Source of the DNA: Xanthobacteraceae bacterium
Lineage (GTDB): Bacteria; Pseudomonadota; Alphaproteobacteria; Rhizobiales; Xanthobacteraceae
Length of the DNA stretch: 64,000 nucleotides
Reading direction: 5' to 3'
NCBI GenBank assembly: GCA_023954195.1
Contig: JAMLIK010000004.1
Location: 310,001 to 374,000 of the forward strand
Part shown: one piece after another, positions 22,723 to 48,650 of the stretch
Layout of the letters: the number at the start of each line of letters is the position of its first letter
Numbering within the stretch: the first letter of the stretch is position 1
Program-made: the position numbers and the translations under genes
Notes under the pieces: generated by a model
What the model was told of the DNA's origin: nothing
The model's database searches: none
Seen by the model: the letters and a program-made list of their open reading frames with translations, nothing else

Positions 22723-23481
22723 TCAGGATGCGGCGGCGGCGGCGCGCTCGACCTTCTTGCGCAGGTTCATGGTGAGGCGCGCCTGCTTCTGGAAGTGAGC
22801 CTGAAGAAGGCGCACCGCGCGATCCTCGTCGCGGTCGAGCGCCGCCTTCATGATGGCCTCGTGCTCGCCGTCGGCGGCGACGGCCCGCTCGGCGTATTTC
22901 CAGAAATAGCGCCGGTAGCGCTCCATGTGATCGTATAATTCATCGAAGAAGTGCAGCAGCCAGGGCGAGCCGCAGCCCTTGCACAGCGCATAGTGGAATT
23001 CACGGTGGCGGTCTTCCCACTCGGTGCGGCGCCCGTCGTCATCCTGATCGGCCGAGACCGCGATGCCGGCCAGCTTGAGGCGATGGAAGGCCGACAGCAG
23101 GTCCACTTCCCAATCCTCGCGGCCGTCCTGGATGGCGCCGCGAATGGCGTAGGCTTCCAGGTTGGCGCGCAGATTGGAGACGTCCAGCATCTCGTCGAAC
23201 TGGATCGGCGCGACGACGAAGCCTTTATGGTCCTCGGCGATCACCAGGCCCTGCGCGGCGACCTGGAACAGGGCTTCGCGCAGCGGGCTGGTGCCGACCT
23301 CGTAACGCTTGCTCAGCTTCTCGAATTGCAGCCGCTCGCCGGGCGCGAGCCGATGGCGGATGATGTCGTGGCGCAGTTGCTGGGCGACCCGGCCGGCGAG
23401 TGTTTTCGGCGCGCCGTCCCGCGAGGGATGCAGGCTGGGGCCCCATCGCCGCGTCGGCTGTTGTTTGGACACATTCGTCAT
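22723..23481 (-). CDS. GntR/FadR-family transcriptional regulator
   Basis: DNA-binding regulator of 252 residues. The winged helix (about 35-100) contains LAGRVAQQLRHDIIRHRLAPGERLQFEKLSKRYEVGTSPLREAL, the GntR signature. The C-terminal helical FCD ligand-binding domain includes DVSNLRANLEAYAIR and the metal-site-like ..DRHREFHYAL. It is divergent from the class III dioxygenase gene at 23615, whose promoter region carries AT-rich palindromes. It is the likely local regulator of the catabolic operon, sensing a pathway acid. ATG 23481 (MTNVSKQQ) is used; the frame is open further upstream without a binding site. Confidence 0.92.
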   Translation of the reverse strand: MTNVSKQQPTRRWGPSLHPSRDGAPKTLAGRVAQQLRHDIIRHRLAPGERLQFEKLSKRYEVGTSPLREALFQVAAQGLVIAEDHKGFVVAPIQFDEMLDVSNLRANLEAYAIRGAIQDGREDWEVDLLSAFHRLKLAGIAVSADQDDDGRRTEWEDRHREFHYALCKGCGSPWLLHFFDELYDHMERYRRYFWKYAERAVAADGEHEAIMKAALDRDEDRAVRLLQAHFQKQARLTMNLRKKVERAAAAAS

Positions 23482-23549
23482 GGGTGCGCCTGTTTGTCGC
23501 GAATCCGCGCTTACTATGGGCGAGCGCCGCCTAAAATCCAAGCGCGAAC

Positions 23550-23583
23550 ATATTTTCGAAAATGTTGACATTTTTGGAAATAT
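23550..23583. promoter_or_regulatory. predicted operator pair for the divergent GntR regulator
   Basis: A perfect 12-base palindrome ATTTTCGAAAAT (23552-23563) is followed 18 bases on by the imperfect copy ATTTTTGGAAAT (23570-23581). A TTGACA at 23565-23570 lies between them and could serve as a -35 box, but no convincing -10 follows. The stretch is strikingly AT-rich in a GC-rich region and lies 31 bases before the dioxygenase start codon. Confidence 0.6.
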
Positions 23584-23614
23584 AGCCCAGCTTTGGGCCA
23601 GCAAGGAGAACGCC

Positions 23615-24493
23615 ATGGCCGAGATCGTCTATGCCGCCGGCGCGCCGCACGCGCCGGGCCTGATCGGACTGCTGGAAGCGGCGCCCCCCGACGTCAAGGA
23701 CGTCGTGGCCCACACCTATCGCAGCCTCGCCGAGGCGATGGCTTCGGCCAAGGCGGACGTGCTGATCGTGTTCGCGAACGACCATCTCGCCAACAGCCGG
23801 GTGCGCGCCTATCCCGACTTCCTGATCGGCATGGCGGCGGAGCATCGCGGGCCCTACGAGTGGTTCAAGCCGTGGATCGGTTGCGAGGACTACACCGTGA
23901 AGGGCGCGCCGGACGTGGCGGCGGCGCTGTTCGACGGCATGACCCGGCGCGGCGTCCGGATGTTCGCGCAAAGCGAGAACCTGAAATTCGACGACAATAT
24001 CTCGGTGCCGGTGCTGCTCACCAACGTCGCCGGCAGCGGCATTCCGATGGTGCCGGTGCTGCAAAACTGCACCGTCCCGCCGATTCCAGATCAGCGCCGC
24101 TGCTACGAGGTCGGCCAGGCGCTCGGCGATTTCATCCGCCACGATCTTCCGGCCGACATGCGGGTGGCGTTGCTGGGCTCCGGCGGGCTGAGCCATGAGC
24201 CGGGCGGGGCGCGCTATTACTTCATCGACGAGGCGTTCGATCGCTGGTTCCTCGATCTGGTCGCCTCCGGCGATCATGAGACGCTGCTGAACGAACTGAC
24301 GCTGGAGAAGATGGAGGCGGCCGGCTCCGGCGGCACGGCGGAGCTGCTGGCATGGATCGTCGTGCTCGGCGCGATCGGCCCGAAGCCGGGCAAGAGCTTC
24401 GGCTACACCGTGCACAAGGACTTCAAGTGCGGCGTCGGCGGCGTGTTGTGGGACATGAGCCCGAACATGCCGAAGTCGCGCGCGGCGGCCTGA
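23615..24493 (+). CDS. class III extradiol ring-cleavage dioxygenase, catalytic (LigB-like) subunit
   Basis: Fe(II) enzyme of 292 residues opening a catechol-type or aminophenol-type ring. Residues matching those of protocatechuate 4,5-dioxygenase LigB are all visible: iron ligands His12 (GAPHAP), His57 (FANDHLAN) and Glu243 (GGTAELLAW), and catalytic-base His194 (GGLSHEPGG). AAGGAG lies 7 bases before the ATG at 23615. A small LigA-like partner follows 14 bases later. Substrate cannot be fixed: protocatechuate, gallate, aminophenol and related dioxygenases share these residues. A palindromic operator lies directly upstream. Confidence 0.9.
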   Translation: MAEIVYAAGAPHAPGLIGLLEAAPPDVKDVVAHTYRSLAEAMASAKADVLIVFANDHLANSRVRAYPDFLIGMAAEHRGPYEWFKPWIGCEDYTVKGAPDVAAALFDGMTRRGVRMFAQSENLKFDDNISVPVLLTNVAGSGIPMVPVLQNCTVPPIPDQRRCYEVGQALGDFIRHDLPADMRVALLGSGGLSHEPGGARYYFIDEAFDRWFLDLVASGDHETLLNELTLEKMEAAGSGGTAELLAWIVVLGAIGPKPGKSFGYTVHKDFKCGVGGVLWDMSPNMPKSRAAA

Positions 24494-24507
24494 GACGGGG
24501 GACGACT

Positions 24508-24816
24508 ATGGGCCTTGAGAAATTCAACCCGTCGCTGGCGACGCACGATCTGATCCAGGATCTGAAATGGTCGCCGGAGCTGCGCGAGGCGTTCGCCGCC
24601 GATGAAGCCGCCGTGCTCGATCGCTACCCGCTGCGGCAGGACGAGCGGCGCGCGATCGAGACGCGCAACTTTCTCGCGCTCTACGACATGGGTCTTCATC
24701 CCTATCTCGGCGGACAATTCGCCCGGCTGATCTTCGGCAACGAGGCCGGCAAGGGCGCCACCGTCGCCGTCAACAAACTGGTCGAATCGCTTCAGGGCAA
24801 GGGGTCCGTCGCCTAG
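24508..24816 (+). CDS. class III extradiol dioxygenase, small (LigA-like) subunit
   Basis: 102-residue helical protein resembling the alpha subunit of protocatechuate 4,5-dioxygenase. DLKWSPELREAFAADEAAVLDRYPLRQDERRAIETRNFLALYDMGLHPYLGGQFARL carries the LigA-type helix pattern and the conserved L..MG.HP.L segment that caps the active site of the large subunit. It is placed just after the LigB-like gene, an order (large then small) reversed relative to sphingomonad ligAB. It has no catalytic residues of its own. Confidence 0.85.
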   Translation: MGLEKFNPSLATHDLIQDLKWSPELREAFAADEAAVLDRYPLRQDERRAIETRNFLALYDMGLHPYLGGQFARLIFGNEAGKGATVAVNKLVESLQGKGSVA

Positions 24817-24967
24817 AGACTGATCCTCGACCCAAGGCAGACAAGTAAAGGATCGCAGCTTCGGCTGGTGGGCGCGTGCTCTCCGGAGACGAGACCGTGC
24901 GGCGGATGGCCGTCGCCAGAATACCAGAGTCGGAGCGGATTGAACCGCCAGGGAAGGAAAACGTGAA

Positions 24968-26935: not shown

Positions 26936-27885
26936 TGGCCACGCACGTTCTCAAGGCCAGCGCGTCGACGGTTCAGGCCGGGATCATCGATCCGAAAGCC
27001 AAGCCCGTCCACACGGTGGCCTCCGGCGACACCGTGATCCTCGACACCTGGGCGATGTGGGACAATGCCGGCGGCGCGTCGCTAGACCTTGAGCAGGCCA
27101 TGACGTTACGCGAGCGGTTCCGCGCCGAGGGGCGCGGGCCGCACAGTCTCACCGGGCCGATCGCCGTCGAAACCGCGCGTCCCGGCGACGTTCTCAAGGT
27201 CGAGATCGAGAGCCTCGATATCGCCGATCACGGCATCAACCTGATTTTCCCCGGAGGACGCAGTCGCGGCTTGCTGAGCGACATTTTCCCGGAGGCCGAG
27301 CTGCGCCATTTCAAGCTCGACCGGGAGACCATGACCACGCGCTTCGGCCAAGGCGTCAGAATGCCGCTGCGGCCGTTCCTCGGCATCATGGGCGTGCTGC
27401 CGTCGCTTGATGAGGCCGCGCGCAGTTCCGCCATCCCCGGCAATTTCGGCGGCAATATCGATTGCGCCGATCTGGTCGCGGGCAGCACGTTGTATCTCCC
27501 GGTCTTCGTCGACGGCGCGGGCTTCTACGCGGGCGACGCGCACGCGGCGCAGGGCTGCGGCGAAGTGGTGCAGACCGCGCTGGAAACCGCGATGACCGCG
27601 GCACGGCTGCGGCTGACGGTGCAGAAGGGCCGCTCGATCCTTCGCCCGTGGGCCGAAACCCGCGAGCATTTCATCACCATGGGCCTGGATGAGGACCTGC
27701 GCGAGGCGGCGCGGCAGGCGGTGCGCGACATGATCGACCTGATGGCGGCGACCAAGGGCATGACGCGGTCCGACGCCTATGCGCTATGCTCCCTGCAAGC
27801 CGACCTGATGGTGACTCAGCTCGTCAACGGCGTCAGCGGCATTCACGCCCGCATGCCGAAATCGATTTTCCAGGGTGGCACATGA
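26935..27885 (+). CDS. acetamidase/formamidase family hydrolase (FmdA/AmdA)
   Basis: 316-residue metal-dependent amidase predicted to hydrolyse formamide, acetamide or a short amide to the acid and ammonia. Family landmarks are IPGNFGGNIDC (about 163-173) and the metal/ligand region GDAHAAQGCGE (about 198-208), followed by a helical C-terminus. It sits between DUF1989 and the ABC ATPase genes with a TGATG overlap before and ATGA after, so it belongs to the transporter operon and may process the imported compound or an amide released in its breakdown. Confidence 0.9.
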   Translation: MATHVLKASASTVQAGIIDPKAKPVHTVASGDTVILDTWAMWDNAGGASLDLEQAMTLRERFRAEGRGPHSLTGPIAVETARPGDVLKVEIESLDIADHGINLIFPGGRSRGLLSDIFPEAELRHFKLDRETMTTRFGQGVRMPLRPFLGIMGVLPSLDEAARSSAIPGNFGGNIDCADLVAGSTLYLPVFVDGAGFYAGDAHAAQGCGEVVQTALETAMTAARLRLTVQKGRSILRPWAETREHFITMGLDEDLREAARQAVRDMIDLMAATKGMTRSDAYALCSLQADLMVTQLVNGVSGIHARMPKSIFQGGT

Positions 27886-28642
27886 CCGGGCTGCTCGAAG
27901 TGCGCCATGTCGGCATCCGGTTCGGCGGCGTGCGCGCGCTTCAGGATGTGTCGTTCGAGGTCGAGGACGGCATGATCTGCGGGTTGATCGGGCCGAACGG
28001 CGCCGGCAAGACCACCCTGTTCAACGCCATCTCCCGCGTCTACGACGTCAGCCAGGGGTCGATCCATTTCGCCGGGCTGGATATCACCGCGCTGCCGGCG
28101 AGCCGGATCATCGGACTCGGCATCGCCCGCACGTTGCAGAATGTCGGACTGTTCGGCGCGATGTCGGTGACGGAGAACGTGCTGCTCGGCGCGCATCACC
28201 GGCTGCGGCCGGGCTTCGTCAACGCCATTTTCGACAAGGGCGCGGTGATCGACCCGGCCGCGATCGAGCGCGAGGCGCGCGACATCCTGCAAGAACTCGG
28301 CCTGACGGCGGTCGCCGACCATCTGGCCGGCGGCCTGCCGTTCGGCACGCTGAAGCGGATCGAGCTGGCGCGCGCCCTGATCGCGCAGCCGCGCCTCCTG
28401 ATGCTGGACGAACCCGCCAACGGCCTCTCCCACGGCGAGGTCGACGAGTTGTCCGAGGTCATCCTGCGGGTGCGGCGGCGCCATGGCCTCACGGTGCTGC
28501 TGGTCGAGCATCACATGCGGATGCTGATGCGGATTTCCGATCGCGTCGTCGTGCTTGAGAACGGCGTCAAGATCGCCGACGGGCCGCCGGCCGAGGTCAA
28601 GGCCGACCCCGGCGTCGCCGCCGCTTACCTGGGGACGGTGGC

Positions 28643-28646
<4 letters not shown>
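27882..28646 (+). CDS. ABC transporter ATP-binding protein, LivG type (system 1)
   Basis: Cytoplasmic ATPase subunit, 254 residues. Walker A GPNGAGKT lies near residue 38, the Q-loop segment RTLQNVGLFG near 85, and Walker B RLLMLDEPA near 165. The ABC signature is the relaxed LPFGTLKRIELARAL form normal for LivG, and HH in VEHHM is the switch region. The insertion AHHRLRPGFVNAIF is typical of LivG. It overlaps the amidase stop by 4 bases (ATGA) and the LivF start in the same way. Confidence 0.95.
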
Positions 28647-29349
<703 letters not shown>

Positions 29350-29353
<4 letters not shown>

Positions 29354-30231
29354 CGCTGTTCGCCAGCCAGATTGTCGATGGCCTCGCCGACGGCGCGATC
29401 TATGCGTCGCTGGCGCTCGCGCTTGTCTTCAGCTACCGCTCCACCGGCATCGTCAATTTCGCGCAGGGCGAGATGGCGATGCTGTCGGCCTATCTGGTGT
29501 GGCAGTTGATGGCCTGGGGCCTGCCGCTCATTCCGGCGGCGCTGGTGTCCATCGCGGTGTCGTTCGTCGCCGGCGCGCTGCTGTATGCGTCGATCGTCAG
29601 GCCGCTGTCCCATGCCAGCCTGCTGACCGTGGTCAGCGTGCTGATCGGCTTGTATCTGGCGCTCAACAGCCTCGCCGGATTCATCTGGACCTACACCATC
29701 AAGCCGCTGCCGAGCCTGTTTCCCAAGGGTCACTTCCGGCTCGGCTGGTTCAACATTTCGGCGGAAACCGCCGGGATCATCATCGTGGTCGCGGTGGTGC
29801 TGCTGCTGCTCTATCTGCTGTTCGAGACCACCAAGATCGGGCTGGCGATGCGCGGCGCGGCGTCGACGCCGGATTCGGCGGTGCTGGTCGGGGTGTCGGT
29901 GCCGCTGATGCTGCTGATCGGCTGGGGCATCGCGGCGGCGCTCGGAGCGCTGTCGGGCATTCTGGTCGCGCCACGGGTGTTCCTCAACCCGACGATGATG
30001 TTCGGCGTCATCATCTACGCTTTCGCGGCAGCGACGCTGGGCGGGTTCGACAGCATCGTCGGCGCGGTGGTCGGCGGCCTTCTGGTCGGCGTGGTGGAGA
30101 ATCTGGTCGGCACCTACATTCCCTGGATCGGCCCCGATCTCAAGATCATCGTGGCGCTGGTGCTGATTTTCGGCACGCTGCTGATTAAGCCGGACGGCTT
30201 GTTCGGCCGCAGCAAGGTGGTGCGGCTATGA
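29350..30231 (+). CDS. branched-chain-type ABC transporter permease, LivH type (system 1)
   Basis: Inner-membrane permease of 293 residues with about eight hydrophobic spans. The signatures GIVNFAQGEMAMLSAYL (second span) and AAATLGGFDSIVGAVVGGLLVGVVENL (the ATPase-coupling loop) mark the LivH family. It is chained by 4-base overlaps to livF before and livM after. Confidence 0.95.
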
Positions 30232-31274
30232 GCGTCGTCATCAAACCGAGATTGCCGGTCGCCGCGCGCGTGCTCGCCGGGGCGGCGCTCGCCGTGGTCC
30301 TGCTCTACGTCATTCCGTTCGCGATTCCGGGGTATCTGGTGAGCCAGTTCGCGACCGTGCTGGTGTTCGCCATCGCCATCGTCGGCATCAACCTGGTGAC
30401 CGGATTCGGCGGCGCCATCACGCTGGGCCATGCCGCGTTCGTCGCGCTCGGTTCCTACACCACCGCGATCCTGGTGGTGCGGTACGGCTGGAGCCCTTAC
30501 GCGACGGTTCCGGTCGCCGCCGCGCTGAGCTGGGTCGCGGGCTGGTGTCTCGGCTTTCCGGCGCTGCGGCTTCAAGGGCTGTATCTCGCGCTCGGCACGC
30601 TGGTGCTTTCGATCACGGTGCCGCCGCTGCTGAAGCGGTTCGAGGCGTTCACCGGCGGCGTGCAGGGGCTCAATGTCGGCAATCCGGAAGCGCCGGCGTT
30701 TCTGCCGATCGACGACTCGCAATGGATCTATTTCCTGTGCCTCGCCGTGGCGGCGGTGCTTTACGTGGTGGCGCGCCGCATTCTGTCGGGGCCGCTGCGG
30801 CGCGCGCTGGTGGCGGCGCGTGACAATCAGCTCGTCGGCGCCGTGATGGGCGTCGACCGCGCCAACCTGACCACCGCGACCTTCGCGATGAGCAGTCTCT
30901 ATGCGGGTGTCGCGGGCTCGCTCTATGCGATGATCGTCGGCTTCGTGTCGCCGGATACCTTCAACGTGATGATGAGCCTCAGCCTGTTCGTCGGCGCCGT
31001 GGTCGGCGGCATCACCTCGCTCAACGGCGCCATCGTCGGCGCCATGTTCATCCAGTTCGTGCCGATCTGGGCCAGCGACATCGACGTCGCGCTCGGCGGC
31101 CTGGTGTTCGGTTGCGCACTGATCGTGACGCTGGTTGTGATTCCGGCGGGCATCGGCGGATTGGGCGAGCGCGCCTTCATCTGGCTGTGCCGCCGGCTCG
31201 GTTGGGTGGAGCGCGCCGAGGCGCGGCGCGACAACATCGCGGTGACGGGGAGCGCGCGGAATGAGCCAGCATGA
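30228..31274 (+). CDS. branched-chain-type ABC transporter permease, LivM type (system 1)
   Basis: Partner permease of 348 residues. The signature GINLVTGFGGAITLGHAAFVALGSYT is followed by the coupling loop RRALVAARDNQLVGAVMGVD and the late segment FVGAVVGGITSLNGAIVGA. The C-terminus carries a short basic tail. Its last 14 bases overlap the amidohydrolase start at 31261, which ties that enzyme to transport. Confidence 0.95.
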   Translation: MSVVIKPRLPVAARVLAGAALAVVLLYVIPFAIPGYLVSQFATVLVFAIAIVGINLVTGFGGAITLGHAAFVALGSYTTAILVVRYGWSPYATVPVAAALSWVAGWCLGFPALRLQGLYLALGTLVLSITVPPLLKRFEAFTGGVQGLNVGNPEAPAFLPIDDSQWIYFLCLAVAAVLYVVARRILSGPLRRALVAARDNQLVGAVMGVDRANLTTATFAMSSLYAGVAGSLYAMIVGFVSPDTFNVMMSLSLFVGAVVGGITSLNGAIVGAMFIQFVPIWASDIDVALGGLVFGCALIVTLVVIPAGIGGLGERAFIWLCRRLGWVERAEARRDNIAVTGSARNEPA

Positions 31275-34624: not shown

Positions 34625-34647
34625 CAGCCGTCGCCGGCGCGGCCTGT

Positions 34648-34659
34648 GTACCGCGATAC
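34648..34659. promoter_or_regulatory. weak candidate Crp-type site before the flavin reductase
   Basis: GTACCGCGATAC is a near-palindrome resembling the stronger elements at 36190 and 37972 but with a 2-base instead of a 4-base spacer. It lies about 60 bases before the flavin reductase start. The difference in spacing makes it a poor match. Confidence 0.25.
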
Positions 34660-34719
34660 GACATTTGTCGCCGCGATCCGTCATGCTGCCCGCCGATGCA
34701 ACCGCCGAGAGCGATTCCG

Positions 34720-36234: not shown

Positions 36235-37485
36235 ATGACAGCAGTTTTCCGGATGGAGCCGATGACGTCAATGGCACGCGCGCAGGCGGAGGAGCGGTCG
36301 GAACAGGATCATGGCGGCGCGGCCGCCGTGGTCGCCAACGCGGCGGACATGCAGGACTGGCTTCGCGGCAAGGCGGTCGAGATCGAGCAGCGCCGCAGCC
36401 TGTCTCCGGAGGTGGTCGAGCGGCTGGTCGACAACGACCTGTTTCGCATCACCCAGCCGAGCCTCTATGGCGGCCTCGGGCTTTCGCCGCGCGCCGCATG
36501 GGAAGCGACCTACGAGATCGCGCGCGGCTGTTCGTCCACCGCCTGGATCCTCGGCCTTTCCAGCGCCAACGTGGTGATGATCGGCAAGTTCTCGGCGCAG
36601 GCCCAGCGCGATGTCTTTCTCTCCGGCAAGCCGACCATCGTGTCGCTGTTGACCGGCGGCGTCGGTCAGGACATCGTCGCCGAGCCGGTGGAGGGCGGTG
36701 TGCTGCTCAGCGGCCGCTGGCGCTATGCCTCCGGCATCGATGTCGCGACCTGGGCCGGCCTTCTGGTGCCGATTCCGGTGGAGGGGCGAATGGTGCCGCA
36801 TGTGGTGCTGGTGCCGGCGGATGCCTTCGCCATCGATCAGGCGAGCTGGAACGTGCTGGGCATGCGCGGCACCGGCAGCAAGGACATTTCGTTGACGAAG
36901 ACGTTCGTTCCGGCGCATCGCTGGATGGACTGGCAGGTGTTGCAGGACGGCGGCTGTCATCCGACCTGCCCGCGCCACGGCGCCATCACCGCCGCGCCGC
37001 TCAATCCGATCAACGCCATGTCGACGCTGGCGCCGACGCTGGGTGTCGCCTCGGCGGTGGCGGAGGAATTCCGCGCCATCGCCAAGGCCAAGGTCAGCCC
37101 GGCGGCGCAAAAGGCGCTGGTGGAGGATCGCGTCGCCCAGATCGAGGCCGCAACCAGCGAGGCGACCATGGCGATGCTGCGCCGCGCCCTGCTCGACGAT
37201 GCCGACGCCATTCTCGAATTATCCGGCGCAGGGCCCGTCAGCCTGATCGAGCGCGCCGCGATGCGCACCCGCTTCGCCGTCGCCTCGCGGCTGGCGTTGC
37301 AGACCACGCAGCGGCTGTTCGCCGCGCTGGGGGGCTCGGTGCTGCCGAGCGGCACGCGGATCGAGCGGCTGTTCCGCGACGTCCACGCCATGAGCAGCCA
37401 CATGCTGCTGCAACCGGGGGCGATCGGCGAGCCTTACGGCCGGCTGCTGCTCGACCTGCCGCTGCCGCCGACGGCGCGAATCTGA
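36235..37485 (+). CDS. acyl-CoA dehydrogenase-fold flavin monooxygenase, oxygenase component
   Basis: 416-residue protein of the group D flavin monooxygenase family (4-hydroxyphenylacetate 3-hydroxylase C2 / HsaA-like), which uses reduced flavin and O2 to hydroxylate a phenol. Landmarks are the N-terminal helix up to LVDNDLFRITQPSLYGGLGL, RGCSSTAWIL (about 96), LSGRWRYASGID (about 161), VLGMRGTGSKDI and the C-terminal ALGGSVLPSGTRIERLFRD. It has no glutamate base of true acyl-CoA dehydrogenases that I can place. ATGs at 36235, 36253 and 36262 are in frame; GGAG precedes 36262. Partner reductase at 34720; RidA and HpaD-like genes follow. Confidence 0.85.
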   Translation: MTAVFRMEPMTSMARAQAEERSEQDHGGAAAVVANAADMQDWLRGKAVEIEQRRSLSPEVVERLVDNDLFRITQPSLYGGLGLSPRAAWEATYEIARGCSSTAWILGLSSANVVMIGKFSAQAQRDVFLSGKPTIVSLLTGGVGQDIVAEPVEGGVLLSGRWRYASGIDVATWAGLLVPIPVEGRMVPHVVLVPADAFAIDQASWNVLGMRGTGSKDISLTKTFVPAHRWMDWQVLQDGGCHPTCPRHGAITAAPLNPINAMSTLAPTLGVASAVAEEFRAIAKAKVSPAAQKALVEDRVAQIEAATSEATMAMLRRALLDDADAILELSGAGPVSLIERAAMRTRFAVASRLALQTTQRLFAALGGSVLPSGTRIERLFRDVHAMSSHMLLQPGAIGEPYGRLLLDLPLPPTARI

Positions 37486-37511: not shown

Positions 37512-37925
37512 ATGAAGAAACAGGCCATCGACTCCCGCAATCCGATTTTCGCCACGGCGGACGGATCGACGATCTTCAAGAAATTCGGCTATTCGCCGGC
37601 GGTGCGCGCGGGCGATTTCCTCTATGTCGCCGGCCAGATCGGCCTCAATCCGGACGGCTCGATGCCGGCGAACGACGAGGGGCAGATCGTCAACGCCTTC
37701 GACCGGCTCAAGATTGTGCTGGAGGAAGCCGGCGCCTCGCTCGACGATATCGTCGAACTGGTCAGCTACCATGTCGGGTTGCAGAACCATCTCGGGAAGT
37801 TCGTCGAGATCAAGAGCCGTTACATCCGCGAGCCGTTCCCGACCTGGACCATCCTCGAAATCGCCGGGCTGGCGCGGCCGGGCCTGGTGATCGAGATCAA
37901 GGCGGTGGCCTACGCGCCGAAATAG
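37512..37925 (+). CDS. RidA/YjgF family protein, catalytic Arg replaced (first)
   Basis: 137-residue small trimeric enzyme of the Rid superfamily. The fold is clear: GDFLYVAGQIGLNPDG, EEAGASLDDIVELVSYHV and the C-terminal strand GLVIEIKAVAY. The position of the essential Arg105 of imine-deaminating RidA is Trp112 here (PTWT). It is therefore probably not a general imine deaminase but one of the pathway-specific subfamilies, some of which deaminate 2-aminomuconate-like ring-cleavage products. It begins 26 bases after the monooxygenase and precedes the HpaD-like dioxygenase. Confidence 0.9.
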   Translation: MKKQAIDSRNPIFATADGSTIFKKFGYSPAVRAGDFLYVAGQIGLNPDGSMPANDEGQIVNAFDRLKIVLEEAGASLDDIVELVSYHVGLQNHLGKFVEIKSRYIREPFPTWTILEIAGLARPGLVIEIKAVAYAPK

Positions 37926-37971: not shown

Positions 37972-37985
37972 GTAGCGGGTGATAC
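37972..37985. promoter_or_regulatory. candidate Crp-type operator before the HpaD-like gene
   Basis: GTAGCGGGTGATAC differs from GTATCGGGCGATAC (36190-36203) at two positions and is followed, like it, by AG. It lies about 100 bases before the dioxygenase start. Occurrence of the same 14-mer pattern before two functionally linked genes supports joint control. Confidence 0.5.
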
Positions 37986-38087: not shown

Positions 38088-39101
38088 ATGAAAGTGAGCG
38101 CTGGCCGCATCAAGGATATCGCCAACATCCAGAAGCTGGGACACATCGAGTTCCGCACCACCGATCTCGAACGGGCGCGCGATTTCTACGTCAACCTGGT
38201 CGGTCTGCACGAGACCGCGCGCGACGAAAGCCGCATCTACCTGCGCTGCACCGAGGACAAGCAGCATCACACCTTCGTGTTGCGCAAGGCGGAGTCCGCC
38301 GGCGTCGGCCATATCGGCTTCGTGGTGTCGGGGGAGGACGATCTCGACCGCATGAAGGTCCGCTTCGAGGAGCTGGGCCTGCCGACGCGCTGGGCCGGCA
38401 ACGACATGCTCGGGCAGGGCCGCACGTTGCGGATGCAGGACCCGTTCGGCTTCATCATCGATTACTATGCCGAGATCGCCCCGGTGCCGTGGCTGGTGCA
38501 GCAGTATCACCTGCACCGCGGTGCCTCGCCGACCCGCATCGATCACGCCAACGTGCTGACGCCGGACGCGCAGGCGGGCTATGAATGGTACACGCAGGAA
38601 CTCGGCTTCGGTTGCGCCGAACTGACCGAATCCGACCCGCCGGAGAAACGGATCTGGGCGAGCTGGTTGTTCCGCAAGTCGACCGTGCATGATATCGCGG
38701 TGATGACCGGCGCGGGTCCGGCCGCGCATCACGTCGGCTTTTCGCTGCCCGACACGGTGTCGATCATCCGCGCCTGCGACATGCTGGCGGGGGCCGGCTA
38801 TCACGATTCGATCGAGCGCGGTCCGGCGCGCCACGGCATTTCCAACGCGCTGTTCGTCTATGTCCGCGATCCCGACGGCAACCGCTTCGAGCTTTACACC
38901 GGCGATTACCTGACCGGAAACACCGCCGTCGAACCGATCCGCTGGAACCTGAACAACCCGGTGCGGCAGACGCTGTGGGGCGCGCCGCCGCCGCGCCGCT
39001 GGTTCGAGGAGGCGATGGCGGTGGAAACCTTCGACGGCGCCGCGATGCAGAGCACGAAGCCGCCGCTGCTGCCGGCGATTCCGACCTACGTCCTGGACTG
39101 A
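38088..39101 (+). CDS. hpaD: homoprotocatechuate 2,3-dioxygenase-like class I extradiol dioxygenase
   Basis: 337-residue VOC-fold Fe/Mn ring-cleavage enzyme. Residues aligning to those known from the Brevibacterium enzyme are all visible: metal ligands His153 (IDHANV), His214 or 215 (AAHHVGF) and Glu268 (NRFELY); catalytic His201; substrate-side Asn155, Trp193, Arg244, His249 and Tyr258. The C-terminal tail TGDYLTGNTAVEP..WNLNNPVRQTLWG also fits this subfamily. Conservation of the Trp and Arg that hold the substrate carboxylate suggests an arylacetate-like catechol. Numbering is by my own count and recalled literature positions. The matching hydroxylase is just upstream. Confidence 0.9.
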   Translation: MKVSAGRIKDIANIQKLGHIEFRTTDLERARDFYVNLVGLHETARDESRIYLRCTEDKQHHTFVLRKAESAGVGHIGFVVSGEDDLDRMKVRFEELGLPTRWAGNDMLGQGRTLRMQDPFGFIIDYYAEIAPVPWLVQQYHLHRGASPTRIDHANVLTPDAQAGYEWYTQELGFGCAELTESDPPEKRIWASWLFRKSTVHDIAVMTGAGPAAHHVGFSLPDTVSIIRACDMLAGAGYHDSIERGPARHGISNALFVYVRDPDGNRFELYTGDYLTGNTAVEPIRWNLNNPVRQTLWGAPPPRRWFEEAMAVETFDGAAMQSTKPPLLPAIPTYVLD

Positions 39102-43944: not shown

Positions 43945-43947
43945 AGC

Positions 43948-44343
43948 ATGTCACGCACCGTCGTCGTCCCGCCCACCGGCCTGCGTCCGGGCATCCCCTA
44001 TTCGCCGGCGATCCGCTGGGACAAATTGCTGTTCGTCTCGGGTCAGACCGGCTCCGATCCGGTGACCCGCGAATTTCCCGAGGACATCAAGGCGCAGACC
44101 CGCATCGCGCTGGAGAACGTCAAGGCGCTGGCGGAAGCCGGCGGCGCCTCGCTCGACACCGCGCTGAAGATGACCATCCACATGACCGACATGATGAACG
44201 AGTTCGCCGCGATGAACGAGGTGTTCCGCGAGTTCTTTCCCAAGGACCCGCCGTCGCGCACCACGGTCGGCGTCGCTCATCTCGCCCGCGCCGGCCTCAA
44301 GATCGAGATCGACATGATCGCGGTGGTGAAGGATGCCGTCTGA
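43948..44343 (+). CDS. RidA/YjgF family protein with conserved Arg (second)
   Basis: 131-residue Rid-superfamily enzyme. LLFVSGQTGSDPVTRE, FPEDIKAQTRIALENVKALAEAGGASLD and PPSRTTVGVAHLARAGLKIEIDMIAV show the fold, and Arg104 (PSRT) occupies the position needed for 2-iminoacid deamination, unlike the RidA at 37512. It begins 3 bases after livF, and its end overlaps the following amidohydrolase by 11 bases, so it is part of the system-2 operon. Likely roles are imine/enamine hydrolysis or aminomuconate-type deamination. Confidence 0.92.
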   Translation: MSRTVVVPPTGLRPGIPYSPAIRWDKLLFVSGQTGSDPVTREFPEDIKAQTRIALENVKALAEAGGASLDTALKMTIHMTDMMNEFAAMNEVFREFFPKDPPSRTTVGVAHLARAGLKIEIDMIAVVKDAV

Positions 44344-45934
44344 GGCGACCACAATTCTTCTGCGCGGCGGCCCCTTGGCGACCGCCGCGCGGGGTGATGC
44401 CGACAGCCTGCTGATCGAGGCCGGCCGCATCGCCTGGATCGGGCCGGCGCGGGAAGCGCCGCGCGCCGCCCGCGTCATCGATCTGGAGGGCAGCCGCGTG
44501 GTGCCGGGACTCACCGACGCCCACGCCCATCTGTTCATGCGGGCGCAGGAGCTGTTGAACCTGCAACTCGGTCCCGCCGCCGACACCATCGCCGCGCTGT
44601 TGCAGCGGCTGCGCGCCGCCTGCGCGGCCGCCGCGCCCGATCAATGGGTGATGTCGGCCGACTATAGCGAGCAATTTCTCGCCGAGCGCCGTCACCCGAC
44701 CCGCGAGGAACTGGATGCCGTCTCCGGCGGGCGACCGGTGCTGCTGCGCCGCACCGGCGGTCACCTGTCGGTCGCCAATTCGGCGGCGCTGCAACGCGCG
44801 GGCTTCGACGACACCACGCCCGATCCGGCGGGCGGCACCATCGAGCGCACCAACGGCCGGCTCAACGGCGTGCTGACCGAAAACGCCGCCGACATCGTCG
44901 CCGCGCTGATCCCGCCGCCGTCCGCGGCGCGCACCCTCGCCGCCATCCGCAGGGTGGCCGGCGAATGCCTGAGCTACGGCATCGTCGCCGTCACCGAGGC
45001 GGCGGTCGGCTTCAACAACGGCTTTGGGGTCGAGTGGGACATCTGGAATGCGCTGCGCGCCGATGGCGGCTTGCCGCTGCGCATGGGGTTCATGCTGCGC
45101 ATCGATCCGGAGGAGGCGCGGGCGCGCGGCCTCGCGCCGTCCGGTATCGACGATCGCTGGCAGGCGCGGACGCTGAAGTTCTTCGTCGACGGCATCATCG
45201 GCGCGCGCACCGCCGCGTTCTTCGAGCCCTATGCGGGCAGCGATAACGCCGGCCTGCTGATGGAGCCGCCGGCCGATCTGCGCGCCAAGGTGATCGACGG
45301 CCATGCCTGCGGCTGGCAACTCGCCGCCCATGTGATCGGCGATCGCGGCATTGCGCAGTGGCTGGATTGCCTGACGGCGGCGCATCGCGCCTGGCCGCGC
45401 GACGACGCGCGGCACCGCATCGAGCATTTCGCGGTGCGCGGCCCGATGGCGGTCGAGCAGGCGCGCGCGCTCGGCGCTATCGTGGTGCCGCAATACGGTT
45501 TTCTGCGCCGGCTCGGCGCGTCGTTCGCGGAAGCGGTGGGCGAGCCGCGCGCGGCGCGGCTTTATCCGGGCCGGACGTTGCGCGACGCCGGCATCGTCGT
45601 CGCCGGCAGTTCGGATCATCCGATCGGACCGCTGTCGCCCTATCTCGGCATCGCCGCCGCGATCGATCGCACGGCGGCGGGCGGGCTGGTTCTCAACGCC
45701 GCCGAAGCCCTGACCGCCGCCGAGGCGCTGGCGGCCTATACCGAGGGCGGGGCCTTCGCGATGGGGCACGAACGGCGGCGCGGCCGCATCGCGGTCGGGC
45801 AATATGCCGATCTCGCGGTGTTGGATCGCGACATTCTCGACCTGCCGCCCGACCGGATCGAGGCGGCGCGGGCGCGGCTGACGCTGGTGGGCGGCGAGAT
45901 CGCTTTTTCCGACGGCGCGCTGGCGGCTTCATGA
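44333..45934 (+). CDS. YtcJ-like metal-dependent amidohydrolase (second)
   Basis: 533-residue amidohydrolase_3 family protein. HxH metal motif in GLTDAHAHLFM (near 63), KFFVDGIIGARTA (near 281, where the bridging region is expected), HVIGDRG (near 330), RIEHF (near 362) and SSDHPIGPLSP (near 425). The C-terminal GQYADLAVLDRD is typical. It is only distantly similar to the first amidohydrolase (31261): GLTDAHAHL versus GFNDAHAHM. It ends the system-2 transporter operon, as the other does in system 1. Confidence 0.9.
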   Translation: MPSEATTILLRGGPLATAARGDADSLLIEAGRIAWIGPAREAPRAARVIDLEGSRVVPGLTDAHAHLFMRAQELLNLQLGPAADTIAALLQRLRAACAAAAPDQWVMSADYSEQFLAERRHPTREELDAVSGGRPVLLRRTGGHLSVANSAALQRAGFDDTTPDPAGGTIERTNGRLNGVLTENAADIVAALIPPPSAARTLAAIRRVAGECLSYGIVAVTEAAVGFNNGFGVEWDIWNALRADGGLPLRMGFMLRIDPEEARARGLAPSGIDDRWQARTLKFFVDGIIGARTAAFFEPYAGSDNAGLLMEPPADLRAKVIDGHACGWQLAAHVIGDRGIAQWLDCLTAAHRAWPRDDARHRIEHFAVRGPMAVEQARALGAIVVPQYGFLRRLGASFAEAVGEPRAARLYPGRTLRDAGIVVAGSSDHPIGPLSPYLGIAAAIDRTAAGGLVLNAAEALTAAEALAAYTEGGAFAMGHERRRGRIAVGQYADLAVLDRDILDLPPDRIEAARARLTLVGGEIAFSDGALAAS

Positions 45935-45971: not shown

Positions 45972-46047
45972 TATCCGTGGCTGCGGCCGATGACCGGTCG
46001 TCCTGGCCAAATGATTTCCGATCCAGCCGATTCAACAGGAGAGCGAC

Positions 46048-47586
46048 ATGAACAAGCCTCTCGCCAACGACGCCCTCGCCGACAACCTGCGCAAGGCGCA
46101 GAGTTTCCTCGCCCGCTTCAAGAGCGGCCCGGTGCCGCACCGGATCGCCGGCGAAAGCGTGGTGAGCGCCGCGACGTTCGAGAATAACGACCCGGCCGAC
46201 AATTCGGTGCTGTGCCAGGTCTCGTCCGGCGGAGCGGCGGAAATCGATCGCGCGGCGCGCGCGGCGGAAGACGCCTTCAAGGTGTGGCGCGCGGTGCCGG
46301 GAGAGAAGCGCCGGGCACTGCTGCACAAGATCGCCGACAAGATCGAGGCCCGCGCCGAGGAAATCGCGCTGGTCGAGAGCGTCGATAGCGGACAGGCGAT
46401 CCGCTACATGGCGAAGGCGGCGCTGCGCGGGGCCGAGAACTTCCGCTTCTACGCCGACAAGGCCCCGGAGGCCAATGACGGCCTGTCGCTGCCGACCGAA
46501 ACGCATCTGAACTACACCATCCGTCAGCCCATCGGCCCGGTCGGCGTCATCACGCCGTGGAACACGCCGTTCATGCTGTCGACCTGGAAGATCGCGCCGG
46601 CCCTGGCGGCGGGTTGCACCATCGTCCACAAGCCGGCCGAATGGAGTCCGCTGTCGGCGGTGATCCTGTCGGAGATCATGAGCGAGGTGTTCGAGGGCGC
46701 GGGCCTGCCCAAGGGCATCGTCAACCTGGTGCACGGCTTCGGCGAAAGCGCCGGCAAGGCGCTGACCGAGCACCCGTCGATCAAGGCCATCGCCTTCGTC
46801 GGCGAGTCGATCACCGGCAGCCACATCATGGCGCAGGGCGCGCCGACCCTGAAGCGCGTCCACTTCGAGCTGGGCGGCAAGAATCCGGTGATCGTGTTCG
46901 ACGACGCCGATCTCGACCGCGCCCGCGACGCCGTGCTGTTCATGATCTACAGTCTCAACGGCCAGCGCTGCACCTCGTCCAGCCGCGCGCTGGTGCAGCG
47001 CTCGATCTACGACAAGTTCACGGCCGAGCTGAAGGCGCGGGTCGAGAAGATCAAGGTCGGCCATCCGCTCGATCCGGCCACCGAGATCGGACCGCTGATC
47101 CACAAGCGGCATGTCGAGAAGGTGCTGAGCTACGCCGACCACGCGCGCGCCGACGGCGCCACCGTCGCCACCGGCGGCAAGCGGGCGATGGAAGGCCAGG
47201 GCAATTTTGTTTGCCCGACGCTGTTCACCGACGCCAGCAACGCGATGAAGATCGCGCAGGAGGAAATCTTCGGCCCCGTGCTGACCGCGATTCCGTTCGA
47301 CGACGAGGCGGACGCGCTGCGCATCGCCAACGACGTGCGTTACGGCCTCGCCGCCTATATCTGGACCGGCGACGTCGGCCGCGCCCATCGCGTGGCGCAA
47401 AGCGTCGAGGCCGGCATGGTGTGGGTGAATTCGGAGAACGTGCGGCATTTGCCGACTCCGTTCGGCGGCGTCAAGGCCAGCGGCATCGGCCGCGACGGCG
47501 GTGACTATGCCTTCGAGATCTACATGGAGCAGAAGAACATCGCCATCGGCCTCGACAAGCATCAACCGCCGAAGATCGGGATTTAG
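46048..47586 (+). CDS. hpaE: aldehyde dehydrogenase, HpaE-like semialdehyde dehydrogenase
   Basis: 512-residue NAD(P)-dependent aldehyde dehydrogenase. GVITPWNTPFML (cofactor loop), FELGGKNPV (general-base Glu) and NGQRCTSSSRALV (catalytic Cys) are intact. The pattern NYTIRQPIGPVGV, DAVLFMIYSLNGQRCTSSS and IWTGDVGRAHRVAQSVEAGMVWVNSENVR resembles 5-carboxymethyl-2-hydroxymuconate semialdehyde dehydrogenase (HpaE) and related ring-fission-product dehydrogenases. It would oxidise the product of the HpaD-like enzyme; AmnC/DmpC-type substrates remain possible. It has its own AT-rich operator at 45950. AGGAG lies before the ATG. Confidence 0.9.
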   Translation: MNKPLANDALADNLRKAQSFLARFKSGPVPHRIAGESVVSAATFENNDPADNSVLCQVSSGGAAEIDRAARAAEDAFKVWRAVPGEKRRALLHKIADKIEARAEEIALVESVDSGQAIRYMAKAALRGAENFRFYADKAPEANDGLSLPTETHLNYTIRQPIGPVGVITPWNTPFMLSTWKIAPALAAGCTIVHKPAEWSPLSAVILSEIMSEVFEGAGLPKGIVNLVHGFGESAGKALTEHPSIKAIAFVGESITGSHIMAQGAPTLKRVHFELGGKNPVIVFDDADLDRARDAVLFMIYSLNGQRCTSSSRALVQRSIYDKFTAELKARVEKIKVGHPLDPATEIGPLIHKRHVEKVLSYADHARADGATVATGGKRAMEGQGNFVCPTLFTDASNAMKIAQEEIFGPVLTAIPFDDEADALRIANDVRYGLAAYIWTGDVGRAHRVAQSVEAGMVWVNSENVRHLPTPFGGVKASGIGRDGGDYAFEIYMEQKNIAIGLDKHQPPKIGI

Positions 47587-47642
47587 AGCCTGATCGGCCG
47601 AAATGGACAATCGCGTTTGGGCGGTGAATGTGCAGCACGACA

Positions 47643-47759
47643 ACCGTCATCCTCCGCGAAAGCGGAGGATCCGGTATCCCCTGTCGGGTCGATTTTCCCT
47701 ACACGCGCTCCGACTACCGGATCGTCCGCCTTCGCGGACGATGACGCCTCGTTTCCAGG
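47643..47759. repeat. intergenic palindromic repeat, family C (third copy)
   Basis: Left end AACCGTCATCCTCCGCGAAAGCGGAGGATCCGGTA, right end TACCGGATCGTCCGCCTTCGCGGACGATGACGCCTCGTTTCCAGG. The hairpins CCTCCGC/GCGGAGG and GTCCGC/GCGGAC are intact and CCGGTA/TACCGG form the inner inverted arms. It separates the dehydrogenase from the cyclase gene. Confidence 0.8.
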
Positions 47760-47825
47760 TGAGGCTCGCGTGTTTCGATCTTCGAAAATCACGGTCTAGA
47801 ATTGATTTCAACGGGAGGGATAGCG

Positions 47826-48650
47826 ATGGACAGCAGGCTTCCACGTTTCGACGCCGGCATTTTCAGCAGCATCGCCGCCGGCGCGCGGCTCTATGAGCTG
47901 TCGCACGCGATGGCGCCGTCGATGCCGGTCTATCACCAGCACATTCCGTTCTCGCTGGCGCTGCATCGCCGCCATGGCGATCCGCACCCGGTGAAGCGCG
48001 AGGACGGCTCCAGCTTCGCCAACGAGGTGATCGTCACCTCGGGTCATTCCGGCACCCATATCGACGCGCTCGGGCATTTCTCCCGCGACGGCTGCCTGCA
48101 TGGCGGCGTCCATGTCGCGGACGTCGAAACCCGCGACGGCTATCGCGAGCATTCGGTGGCGGACATTCCGCCGATCGTTCAGGGCGCGGTGCTGCTGGAT
48201 GTCGCCGCCGCCAGGGGCGTCGATTGCCTCGCGCCGGCGCAGGAGATCACCGTCGCCGATATCGAGGCGGCGCTGGCGTTGAGCGGCGCGCGGATCGCGC
48301 CGGGCGACGCGGTGCTGATCCGCACCGGCTGGGCCAAACACTGGTCGGACGCCGAGACGTTCATCGGCCGCCGCGGCGGCATGCCCGGCCCCGGCGAGAC
48401 GGCGGCGCGCTGGCTGATCGCGCGCGGCGCGAGTTTGATGGGATCGGACACGCCCGGTTTCGAATGCCTGCCGACGCCCGGCGTCTCGGTTCACGCCATC
48501 CTGCTGGTGGATGCCGGTATTCACATCATCGAGAACCTCGATCTTGAGGCGCTGGCGCGCGCGCGTCCGTCGCGCTTTCTGTTTGTGGCGCTGCCGCTGC
48601 GCCTGACCGGCGCGACCGGGTCGCCGATCCGGCCGGTCGCCATCGCCTGA
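47826..48650 (+). CDS. cyclase family protein (kynurenine formamidase / isatin hydrolase fold)
   Basis: 274-residue metal-dependent hydrolase. The family motif HxGTHxDxxxH appears in SGHSGTHIDALGHF (about residues 74-87), with LYELSHAMAPSMPVY near the start. A GDAVLIRTGW segment follows, and SDTPGFECLPTPGVSVHAILLVDAGIHIIENLDL near the end completes the pattern. Members hydrolyse N-formyl or cyclic amides and related bonds (kynurenine formamidase, isatin hydrolase). GGGAGGG lies 6 bases before the ATG. It stands at the end of the catabolic island and fits a pathway with amide intermediates. Confidence 0.9.
   Translation: MDSRLPRFDAGIFSSIAAGARLYELSHAMAPSMPVYHQHIPFSLALHRRHGDPHPVKREDGSSFANEVIVTSGHSGTHIDALGHFSRDGCLHGGVHVADVETRDGYREHSVADIPPIVQGAVLLDVAAARGVDCLAPAQEITVADIEAALALSGARIAPGDAVLIRTGWAKHWSDAETFIGRRGGMPGPGETAARWLIARGASLMGSDTPGFECLPTPGVSVHAILLVDAGIHIIENLDLEALARARPSRFLFVALPLRLTGATGSPIRPVAIA

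What the first reader, a model, noticed from the sequence alone, without database searches (positions are those of the whole stretch)
22723..48650. A large catabolic island combining two ring-cleavage systems with two importers and many amide hydrolases
In 26 kb there are two Liv-type ABC systems, class I (HpaD-like) and class III (LigB/LigA-like) extradiol dioxygenases, a two-component flavin monooxygenase, an HpaE-like dehydrogenase, two RidA, two YtcJ-like amidohydrolases, FmdA-like and cyclase-family hydrolases, DUF1989 and an HSL esterase, with three regulators. No described pathway that I know unites these. The upper 4-hydroxyphenylacetate route is present but HpaF/G/H/I are absent. The amide hydrolases suggest that the starting compound or an intermediate is an amide, imide or N-formyl compound.
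Basis: partly seen in the sequence, partly recalled or inferred. Interest (0 to 1): 0.75.

Follow-up and report, generated by a model that had tools for sequence, protein, structure and literature searches.

The report
Twin aromatic-degradation operons sharing one dehydrogenase
The 26 kb stretch holds two separately controlled sets of genes for breaking open aromatic rings; the right-hand set looks like an undescribed route for a nitrogen-containing aromatic amide, and it also seems to lend one enzyme to the cell's ordinary 4-hydroxyphenylacetate pathway, which has lost its own copy.

Summary
The gene list is right, but it is two gene sets. Module 1 (22723-33868: LigBA, Liv importer, DUF1989, FmdA, YtcJ, esterase) has a GntR-type promoter. 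Module 2 (33926-48650: flavin monooxygenase, two RidA, extradiol HpaD2, Liv importer, YtcJ, HpaE, cyclase) recurs in Bradyrhizobium, Nitratireductor and Burkholderiales. RidA lies near HpaD in 21 of 21 HpaD2 loci examined and 0 of 38 other HpaD loci. Nineteen of 21 hold an amide hydrolase, YtcJ-type or amidase, never both; amidases alone also lie near 7 of 38 others. A palindrome GTATC-N4-GATAC precedes HpaD2 in 21 of 22 loci, 0 of 38 others. The genome has a separate HpaR-HpaF-HpaD locus without hpaE; its only close HpaE is in this island, and the window's single HpaR-type operator lies just upstream of it. Best reading: an amn-like route for an amide-derived, nitrogen-bearing arylacetate (HpaD2 cleavage, HpaE oxidation, RidA2 deamination) feeding the 4-hydroxyphenylacetate lower pathway, with HpaE shared by both. 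Substrate and chemistry are inferred. Module 1 stays poorly explained.

The parts
22723..23424 (-). GntR/FCD regulator of module 1 (start uncertain)
   Evidence: PF00392 + PF07729; HTH begins about residue 74 of the long ORF
23552..23570 (+). Module-1 promoter palindrome ATTTTCGAAAAT followed by TTGACA
   Evidence: Present in 7 of 8 promoters printed, with one mismatch in the eighth (L049); exact pattern in 11 fetched loci, 6 distinct places
23615..24493 (+). LigB-type class III extradiol dioxygenase, catalytic subunit
   Evidence: PF02900 114 bits; His61, His195, Glu242 positions kept, His127 position is Asp
24352..24816 (+). LigA-type small subunit (true start probably near 24500)
   Evidence: PF07746
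24968..26227 (+). Liv-type binding protein 1
   Evidence: PF13458
26243..26935 (+). DUF1989 protein
   Evidence: PF09347
26935..27885 (+). FmdA/AmdA-type hydrolase
   Evidence: PF03069; far below the NCBIfam formamidase cut-off (81 vs 500)
27786..31274 (+). LivG, LivF, LivH, LivM of importer 1
   Evidence: PF00005, PF02653
31261..32931 (+). YtcJ-type amidohydrolase 1 (AmH1)
   Evidence: PF07969
32942..33868 (+). HSL-type esterase, end of module 1
   Evidence: PF07859
33926..34624 (+). Crp/Fnr-type regulator 1; travels with module 2
   Evidence: PF00027; kept with module 2 where module 1 is absent from the locus (L011, L012, L015)
34646..34659 (.). Weak GTATC-N4-GATAC site (2 mismatches) before the flavin reductase
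   Evidence: not significant alone
34696..35217 (+). Flavin reductase
   Evidence: PF01613
35457..36119 (-). Crp/Fnr-type regulator 2
   Evidence: PF00027
36190..36203 (.). Palindrome GTATCGGGCGATAC (putative operator) between regulator 2 and the monooxygenase
   Evidence: one of two perfect sites in the genome; the other lies inside a predicted ORF
36235..37485 (+). Two-component flavin monooxygenase, oxygenase part, HsaA-like (FMOx)
   Evidence: below HsaA and HPA-hydroxylase cut-offs
37512..37925 (+). RidA1 (best PDB hit YjgH), Trp at the RidA catalytic-Arg position
37972..37985 (.). Putative operator GTAGCGGGTGATAC, 116 bp upstream of HpaD2
38088..39101 (+). HpaD2, class I (VOC) extradiol dioxygenase
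   Evidence: TIGR02295 369 bits (cut-off 321); tree; residues
39181..43944 (+). Liv importer 2: binding protein, LivH, LivM-LivG fusion, LivF
43948..44343 (+). RidA2 with the catalytic Arg
44333..45934 (+). YtcJ-type amidohydrolase 2 (AmH2)
   Evidence: PF07969
45955..45966 (.). HpaR-type operator TTAACACGTTAA, its first base 93 bp upstream of HpaE; only such site in the window
46048..47586 (+). HpaE, the only one in the genome at E <= 1e-150
   Evidence: TIGR02299 780 bits (cut-off 638)
47802..48650 (+). Cyclase-family hydrolase (superfamily of kynurenine formamidase and isatin hydrolase), end of module 2
   Evidence: PF04199

Best explanation
Two adjacent, separately regulated catabolic modules. 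Module 2 is a recurring pathway unit: a Liv importer brings in an aromatic amide; an amide hydrolase (YtcJ-type here, amidase-signature elsewhere) frees the amine or acid; the two-component flavin monooxygenase hydroxylates the ring next to an existing substituent; HpaD2 opens the ring (meta); HpaE oxidises the semialdehyde; RidA2 removes nitrogen from the enamine as 2-aminomuconate deaminase does; the product joins the 4-hydroxyphenylacetate (HPA) lower pathway, of which HpaF and an HpaG-like protein were found elsewhere in this genome (HpaH and HpaI were not identified). Most likely substrate class: an amide-derived arylacetate whose ring cleavage gives a 2-amino analogue of 5-carboxymethyl-2-hydroxymuconate, for example a 4-aminophenylacetate. 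In this genus the same HpaE also serves the ordinary HPA operon, which lost its own hpaE; an HpaR-type operator upstream of the island hpaE couples the two. Shown by sequence: gene content, RidA linkage, amide-hydrolase content, the two palindromes, the missing native hpaE. Inferred: every enzymatic step, the substrate, which regulators bind, and that HpaE serves both. Module 1 is a separate LigBA unit of unknown substrate.
For: RidA within 7 kb of HpaD in 21 of 21 HpaD2 loci and 0 of 38 other HpaD loci; YtcJ in 10 of 21 against 0 of 38; amidase-signature enzyme in 9 of 21 (in each directly after LivF), both types in 0, neither in 2. HpaD2 rows are one side of a branch (SH-aLRT 99, 23 of 61 rows, quick tree). 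RidA2 keeps the catalytic Arg wherever it was read. GTATC-N4-GATAC (up to 1 mismatch) within 300 bp upstream of HpaD2 in 21 of 22 loci, 0 of 38 others, chance mean 0.085 of 22, largest 2. HPA lower-pathway genes lie in 3 of 21 HpaD2 loci: L016 (HpaF, two FAA proteins, HpaI; same palindrome before HpaF), L022 (HpaI, three FAA, HpaF), L017 (HpaF). Own genome: HpaR-HpaF-HpaD-HpaG-like locus without HpaE; one HpaE at E <= 1e-150, in the island. TTAACANGTTAA: one site in the window, before HpaE; one in the canonical locus, about 60 bp before HpaF and beside divergent hpaR; 25 of 30 alphaproteobacterial canonical HpaD loci have a perfect site; 0 in 291,036 bp of 17 other loci. HpaR sites in the hpa promoter are reported as TTAA-N4-TTAA (PMC7180172, passages). 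HpaD2 keeps R243 and H248, recalled as carboxylate-binding.
Against: No substrate, activity or expression data. HpaD2 and HpaE both pass the ordinary HpaD/HpaE cut-offs, so plain homoprotocatechuate is not excluded. No HpaB-type (PF03241) hydroxylase was found in the genome, so FMOx could be its 4-HPA hydroxylase. Amidases are not specific: within 7 kb they lie near 5 of 21 HpaD2 and 7 of 38 other HpaD genes. FMOx is found in only 12 of 21 HpaD2 loci and HPA lower genes in 3 of 21 (some contigs are short). Burkholderiales HpaE belongs to another HpaE lineage. The HpaR-type site is absent in 12 of 21 HpaD2 loci. Four canonical loci without the island nearby (L112, L113, L116, L122) also show no HpaE, so its absence is not confined to island carriers. 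One genome with a native hpaE (G431) still has the site before the island HpaE.
Confidence: 0.48

Rival explanations
1. Module 2 is a second or replacement 4-hydroxyphenylacetate pathway: FMOx/reductase is the 4-HPA 3-hydroxylase, HpaD2 and HpaE act on homoprotocatechuate and its product, the amide hydrolases free 4-HPA from amides, and RidA only clears stray imines.
For: HpaD2 and HpaE exceed NCBIfam cut-offs; no PF03241 HpaB in the genome; HpaE carries an HpaR-type site; catalytic and recalled carboxylate-site residues kept.
Against: The genome already has an HpaD in a locus with HpaR; RidA is in 21 of 21 HpaD2 loci and 0 of 38 others; FMOx scores 131 against a cut-off of 650 for the HPA hydroxylase.
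Confidence: 0.28
2. The 26 kb is one pathway in which LigBA and HpaD2 act in sequence or on two rings of one compound.
For: Close LigB seen only with HpaD2 in the 391 family genomes sampled (7 of 7); same contig in 6 of 7 genus genomes; linked in another arrangement in L008.
Against: Different conserved promoter palindromes; HpaD2 without close LigB in G337 and G373.
Confidence: 0.13
3. The substrate bears its nitrogen on the side chain (DOPA, dopamine, tyramine or an N-acyl form) and RidA hydrolyses a side-chain imine, not a ring-derived enamine.
For: RidA proteins hydrolyse imines and enamines in general; amide hydrolases could remove an N-acyl group (general knowledge, no call).
Against: No amine oxidase, amino-acid decarboxylase or aminotransferase family was found among the module-2 proteins scanned; RidA2 is tied to HpaD2 across loci.
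Confidence: 0.1

Closest known systems
Homoprotocatechuate (HPA) meta-cleavage pathway, hpa genes with HpaR
   Same: HpaD and HpaE families; HpaR-type operator before HpaE; HPA lower-pathway genes beside HpaD2 in three other loci
   Different: RidA proteins, amide hydrolase, Liv importer, HsaA-like monooxygenase and another palindrome before HpaD2; the genome has another, canonical HpaD; no lower-pathway genes in the island
2-Aminophenol amn pathway (amnRJBACDFEHG, Burkholderia xenovorans LB400; PMC3790839, abstract and passages)
   Same: Logic: extradiol cleavage, semialdehyde dehydrogenase, 2-aminomuconate deaminase (Rid family in strain AP-3 according to PMC7118221, passages) and a second RidA-like protein (AmnJ)
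   Different: amn uses a LigB-type dioxygenase and the 4-oxalocrotonate lower route; here a VOC-type HpaD2 and HPA-type HpaE, with importer, amide hydrolase and monooxygenase
Proposed 4-aminocatechol route of Pseudomonas sp. TDA1 (PMC7118221, passages)
   Same: Proposes extradiol cleavage, HpaE-type oxidation and Rid-type deamination feeding HPA enzymes
   Different: A proposal with candidate genes at separate places; no conserved cluster in the passages seen
Protocatechuate/gallate dioxygenases LigAB and DesB
   Same: Module-1 LigB family; His61, His195 and Glu242 positions kept
   Different: 107 bits against the NCBIfam cut-off of 290; Asp at the His127 position

Membership tests
Homoprotocatechuate (HPA) meta pathway | HpaD and HpaE above curated cut-offs | tested here: met
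   TIGR02295 369 vs 321; TIGR02299 780 vs 638
Homoprotocatechuate (HPA) meta pathway | HpaF/G/H/I in the same cluster | tested here: not met
   None among the island proteins scanned; HpaF and an HpaG-like protein on contig C1
Homoprotocatechuate (HPA) meta pathway | HpaR operator (TTAA-N4-TTAA) | tested here: met
   Met for HpaE only; HpaD2 has a different palindrome
Homoprotocatechuate (HPA) meta pathway | Cleaves homoprotocatechuate | not testable with these tools
   No assay; catalytic residues kept
2-Aminophenol (amn) pathway | LigB-type AmnBA dioxygenase next to AmnC and AmnD | tested here: not met
   HpaD2 is VOC-type; module-1 LigB matched only gallate, protocatechuate and 2,3-dihydroxyphenylpropionate dioxygenase chains at E <= 0.001
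2-Aminophenol (amn) pathway | RidA-family protein beside ring-cleavage genes | tested here: met
   21 of 21 HpaD2 loci; Arg kept in RidA2
2-Aminophenol (amn) pathway | 2-Aminomuconate-type deamination | not testable with these tools
   No assay
HPA 3-hydroxylase (C2) / HsaA monooxygenase | Score above curated cut-off | tested here: not met
   HsaA 186 vs 450; HPA hydroxylase 131 vs 650
LigAB protocatechuate 4,5-dioxygenase | Score above curated cut-off; metal ligands and active-site His residues | tested here: not met
   107 vs 290; His127 position is Asp, His61/His195/Glu242 kept; the first ligand (a His at residue 12) was seen by eye only, as the reference stretch starts later
RidA enamine/imine deaminase | Catalytic Arg (E. 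coli R105, numbering recalled) | tested here: met
   Met by RidA2; RidA1 has Trp and does not meet it

The most novel reading that the evidence does not exclude
A previously undescribed aerobic pathway, shared by Bradyrhizobium relatives, Nitratireductor and Burkholderiales, breaks down an amide-derived aminoarylacetate through a VOC-type extradiol dioxygenase, an HPA-type dehydrogenase and a RidA deaminase, under a Crp/Fnr-type operator GTATC-N4-GATAC; in the window's genus the pathway's dehydrogenase came under HpaR control and replaced the native hpaE of the ordinary HPA operon.
Probability: 0.33. Interest if true: 0.65.

Novelty: new variant of a known kind. Interest (0 to 1): 0.52.

Why it matters
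It turns an eye-catching list of hydrolases into a testable pathway unit with a defined core, a defined palindrome and a proposed point of entry into known metabolism. It suggests that RidA proteins, often treated as housekeeping detoxifiers, serve as pathway enzymes beside a VOC-type dioxygenase. It also points to an enzyme shared by two pathways through an operator, with the native copy lost, a case of rewiring that one deletion can test.

Tried and rejected
HpaD residue 293 (Arg in the solved homoprotocatechuate dioxygenase, Gln in HpaD2) looked diagnostic but canonical alphaproteobacterial HpaD also has Gln (30 of 30): dropped. The idea that hpaE absence from a canonical locus is confined to island carriers failed in general (L112, L113, L116, L122); within the 18 loci whose HpaD is at least 77% like the window genome's canonical one, absence goes with an island-type HpaE elsewhere in 8 of 9. 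The perfect GTATC-N4-GATAC site at C1:725186 lies inside a predicted ORF and was discarded as a target. That palindrome with up to 2 mismatches is not above chance in the window (15 found, 10.1 expected); its weight rests on its position across loci. Amidase presence alone is not specific to HpaD2 loci. Auxin (iad/iac) and benzoxazinoid (bxd) pathways were considered: bxd (PMC11297187, passages) has a lactonase, an aldehyde dehydrogenase and a VOC protein, and 'RidA' does not occur in its main text; the auxin comparison is from recall only. A paracetamol study reports highly expressed RidA genes and extradiol dioxygenases, at no stated cluster in the passages seen (PMC9420511). Paper searches listed nothing whose title or abstract start describes this gene set; searches were about dioxygenase residues. 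No structure prediction was run.

Rows dropped and limits: L007 (6 kb contig); L033-L044 (partial or remote matches) from the HpaD2 counts; L118 is missing from the HpaE tree (coverage filter). The 21 HpaD2 loci are those found, which reaches close relatives only. L010 and L013 have identical HpaD2 proteins, and the genus genomes are close relatives, so counts are not independent events. Several loci are short (L024, L116, L140, L017, L021), which limits 'within 7 kb'. In canonical loci HpaD lies inside an operon, so the 300 bp upstream test is weaker there; whole-locus counts are given too. Confidence in the best explanation was lowered from 0.50 to 0.48 on re-checking, because of the amidase control.
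Full report
What is there. The region splits at about 33900. Module 1 is GntR(-), LigB, LigA, a binding protein, DUF1989, FmdA, LivGFHM, a YtcJ-type amidohydrolase and an HSL esterase. Module 2 is a Crp-type regulator, flavin reductase, a second Crp-type regulator(-), an HsaA-like monooxygenase, RidA1, HpaD2, a second Liv system with a fused LivM-LivG, RidA2, a second YtcJ-type protein, HpaE and a cyclase-family hydrolase. The next gene is YbgC, a tol-pal-associated thioesterase.

Are the modules one thing? In named genomes the order LivG1 to cyclase is kept in L003-L006 and L009; module 2 is seen without module 1 in the fetched stretch in L011, L012, L015, and in a reduced form in L010, L013, L014; in L008 both are present but divergently arranged and the monooxygenase is not in the stretch. 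In a sample of 391 genomes of the family, close LigB (at least 90%) is in 7, all of the window's genus; HpaD2 (at least 84%) is in those 7 plus G337 and G373, which lack the LigB. By their coordinates G337 and G373 are the Bradyrhizobium genomes of L011 and L014. One genus member, G007, lacks both. LigB and HpaD2 lie on one contig in 6 of 7 genus genomes. Module 1 has its own palindrome beside TTGACA in 7 of 8 promoters read, with one mismatch in the eighth. So the modules are separable and appear separately controlled, though close LigB was not seen without HpaD2 in this sample.

HpaD2 is a distinct, RidA-linked clade. A quick maximum-likelihood tree of 61 HpaD proteins puts the 23 HpaD2 rows on one side of a branch with SH-aLRT 99. 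Within 7 kb of HpaD (HpaD2 loci of 21, other HpaD loci of 38): RidA 21 and 0; FMOx 12 and 0; YtcJ 10 and 0; LivM-LivG type 17 and 1; HpaE 19 and 23; amidase 5 and 7; HpaF 3 and 27; HpaI 2 and 12; HpaH 2 and 17; cyclase 0 and 2 (it lies just beyond 7 kb in nine HpaD2 loci). Over the whole fetched stretch, YtcJ is in 10 of 21 and amidase in 9 of 21, both in none; of the two with neither, L021 is cut short upstream. In all 9 the amidase directly follows LivF; the YtcJ gene follows RidA2. Two unrelated amide hydrolases at this place argue that hydrolysis of an amide belongs to the pathway; that is inference, and the 7 of 38 other loci with an amidase (six of the window's genus and G373) count against its specificity. 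RidA2 keeps the catalytic Arg wherever it could be read; RidA1 has Trp there, from Bradyrhizobium to Candidimonas.

A shared palindrome. GTATC-N4-GATAC with at most one mismatch lies within 300 bp upstream of HpaD2 in 21 of 22 loci (the window included), against 0 of 38 other HpaD genes and 0.085 of 22 expected from first-order Markov resampling, largest 2. The exception, L023, has two perfect sites elsewhere in its stretch. Perfect sites number 24 in 409,786 bp of 21 HpaD2 loci and 0 in 521,438 bp of 38 others. Sites also lie between Crp-type regulator 2 and the monooxygenase in the window and in all 11 scanned relatives with that arrangement, before the importer in L018, L020, L022 and L026, and before HpaF in the Nitratireductor locus L016. 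Five-base half-sites with a four-base gap match the geometry of Fnr-type operators (recalled); which regulator binds is not shown. The window's genome has two perfect sites, one at 36190 and one inside a predicted ORF.

Link to the 4-hydroxyphenylacetate pathway. Three of 21 HpaD2 loci carry HPA lower-pathway genes: L016 (HpaF, two FAA-family proteins, HpaI), L022 (HpaI, three FAA-family proteins, HpaF) and L017 (HpaF). The window's genome has a canonical locus on contig C1: HpaR (TIGR02337 155 bits, cut-off 121), HpaF, an HpaD 45% like HpaD2, and an HpaG-like protein below its cut-off. Among the 18 loci whose HpaD is at least 77% like this one, nine have HpaE between HpaF and HpaD; nine do not: seven genus members, G014 and G337. 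Eight of those nine hold an island-type HpaE elsewhere; for the ninth, G004, a fragmented assembly, none was found. In the window's genome the island HpaE is the only one at E <= 1e-150. Four less similar canonical loci (L112, L113, L116, L122) also lack HpaE; no HpaE at that threshold was found in three of their genomes (G034, G018, G017), and the fourth, G040, was not in that search.

The HpaR-type operator. TTAACANGTTAA occurs once in the 64 kb window, ending 82 bp upstream of HpaE (none in 100 shuffles), and once in the fetched canonical locus, about 60 bp upstream of HpaF, beside divergent hpaR. In two relatives read gene by gene it lies between hpaR and hpaH. Perfect sites occur in 25 of 30 alphaproteobacterial canonical HpaD loci, one has a single mismatch, four have none; none occurs in 17 other loci (291,036 bp). 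HpaR sites in the hpa promoter of Yersinia, as in E. coli W, are reported as TTAA-N4-TTAA (PMC7180172, passages), the same architecture. The site is present in 9 of 21 HpaD2 loci, each time before HpaE, and absent in 12. Before the island-type HpaE it is present in all 8 genomes that lack a native hpaE and could be read, and in 1 of 5 that keep it (Fisher p 0.007); these reflect few evolutionary events, at least two, so the p-value overstates the case. The simplest reading is that the island HpaE came under HpaR control and the native hpaE was lost. In the HpaE tree the alphaproteobacterial island HpaE, with G014's, forms one group (97), and the Burkholderiales island HpaE another (100).

Mechanism. 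HpaD2 keeps the metal ligands and the catalytic residues of homoprotocatechuate dioxygenase, including R243 and H248, and differs from canonical HpaD at 16 fixed positions, among them 246, 254 and 256 near the active-site loop (roles recalled). With an HPA-type HpaE, HPA lower genes in three relatives and a RidA in every HpaD2 locus examined, the best fit is an arylacetate bearing nitrogen, opened to an aminomuconate-type product, oxidised, deaminated and passed to the HPA lower pathway. This works like the amn pathway (PMC3790839: AmnBA, AmnC, AmnD, with RidA-like AmnJ; abstract and passages), but with a different dioxygenase fold and another lower route. It is not filed as amn or as plain HPA, since each fails a tested feature.

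Module 1. LigB belongs to a subfamily with His61, His195 and Glu242 positions kept and Asp at His127 in the window and 15 of 19 homologues aligned (the other four keep His). Relatives at 62-66% identity lie beside GntR, Liv or other importers, YtcJ-type, Amidohydro_2, creatininase-type or RidA genes in varying sets, so a LigBA plus amidohydrolase theme recurs on its own. Its substrate is unknown; I make no stronger claim.

Novelty. Eight paper searches listed nothing whose title or abstract start describes this set; the library is open-access PMC only. New variant of a known kind: familiar enzymes in an undescribed, conserved combination that appears commonly regulated.

Noticed in passing
window 23615-24493 and relatives L008, L046-L051, L054, L081-L085, L143, L144: LigB subfamily with Asp in place of the His at LigB position 127, other aligned active-site positions kept.
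   Followed up: partly
G000:C2:953863-954717 (L081): A second LigBA pair (63-67% identical) beside an Amidohydro_2 protein and a RidA, with M81 and M20 peptidase-type genes and an ABC transporter nearby.
   Followed up: partly
window 37512-37925 and relatives incl. L019: RidA1 next to the monooxygenase has Trp in every copy read where RidA enzymes carry the catalytic Arg; function unknown.
   Followed up: no
window 35292-35310, 47654-47672, 47719-47737: Intergenic repeat CCGCGAANGCGGANSATCC, 3 copies in the window against 0.3 expected; looks like a dispersed intergenic palindromic element.
   Followed up: no
window 41379-43178: LivM and LivG of importer 2 are fused in one 599-aa ORF, also in relatives.
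   Followed up: no
G014 contig C10, locus L127 6587-8125: A lone island-type HpaE (88%) with an HpaR-type site about 54 bp upstream, in a genome whose canonical hpa locus lacks hpaE; no other module-2 gene in the 15 kb stretch.
   Followed up: partly
G000:C2:976818-977117: Weak FAA-hydrolase match that may be the genome's HpaH; not identified.
   Followed up: no
L019 11485-12513: An HPPD-like protein between RidA2 and RidA1 in the Candidimonas HpaD2 locus.
   Followed up: no
L086 14081-15535 and other canonical hpa loci of the genus: An amidase-signature gene lies 1.7-4.2 kb from the canonical HpaD in six genus genomes and 5.0 kb from it in G373; its role is unknown.
   Followed up: no
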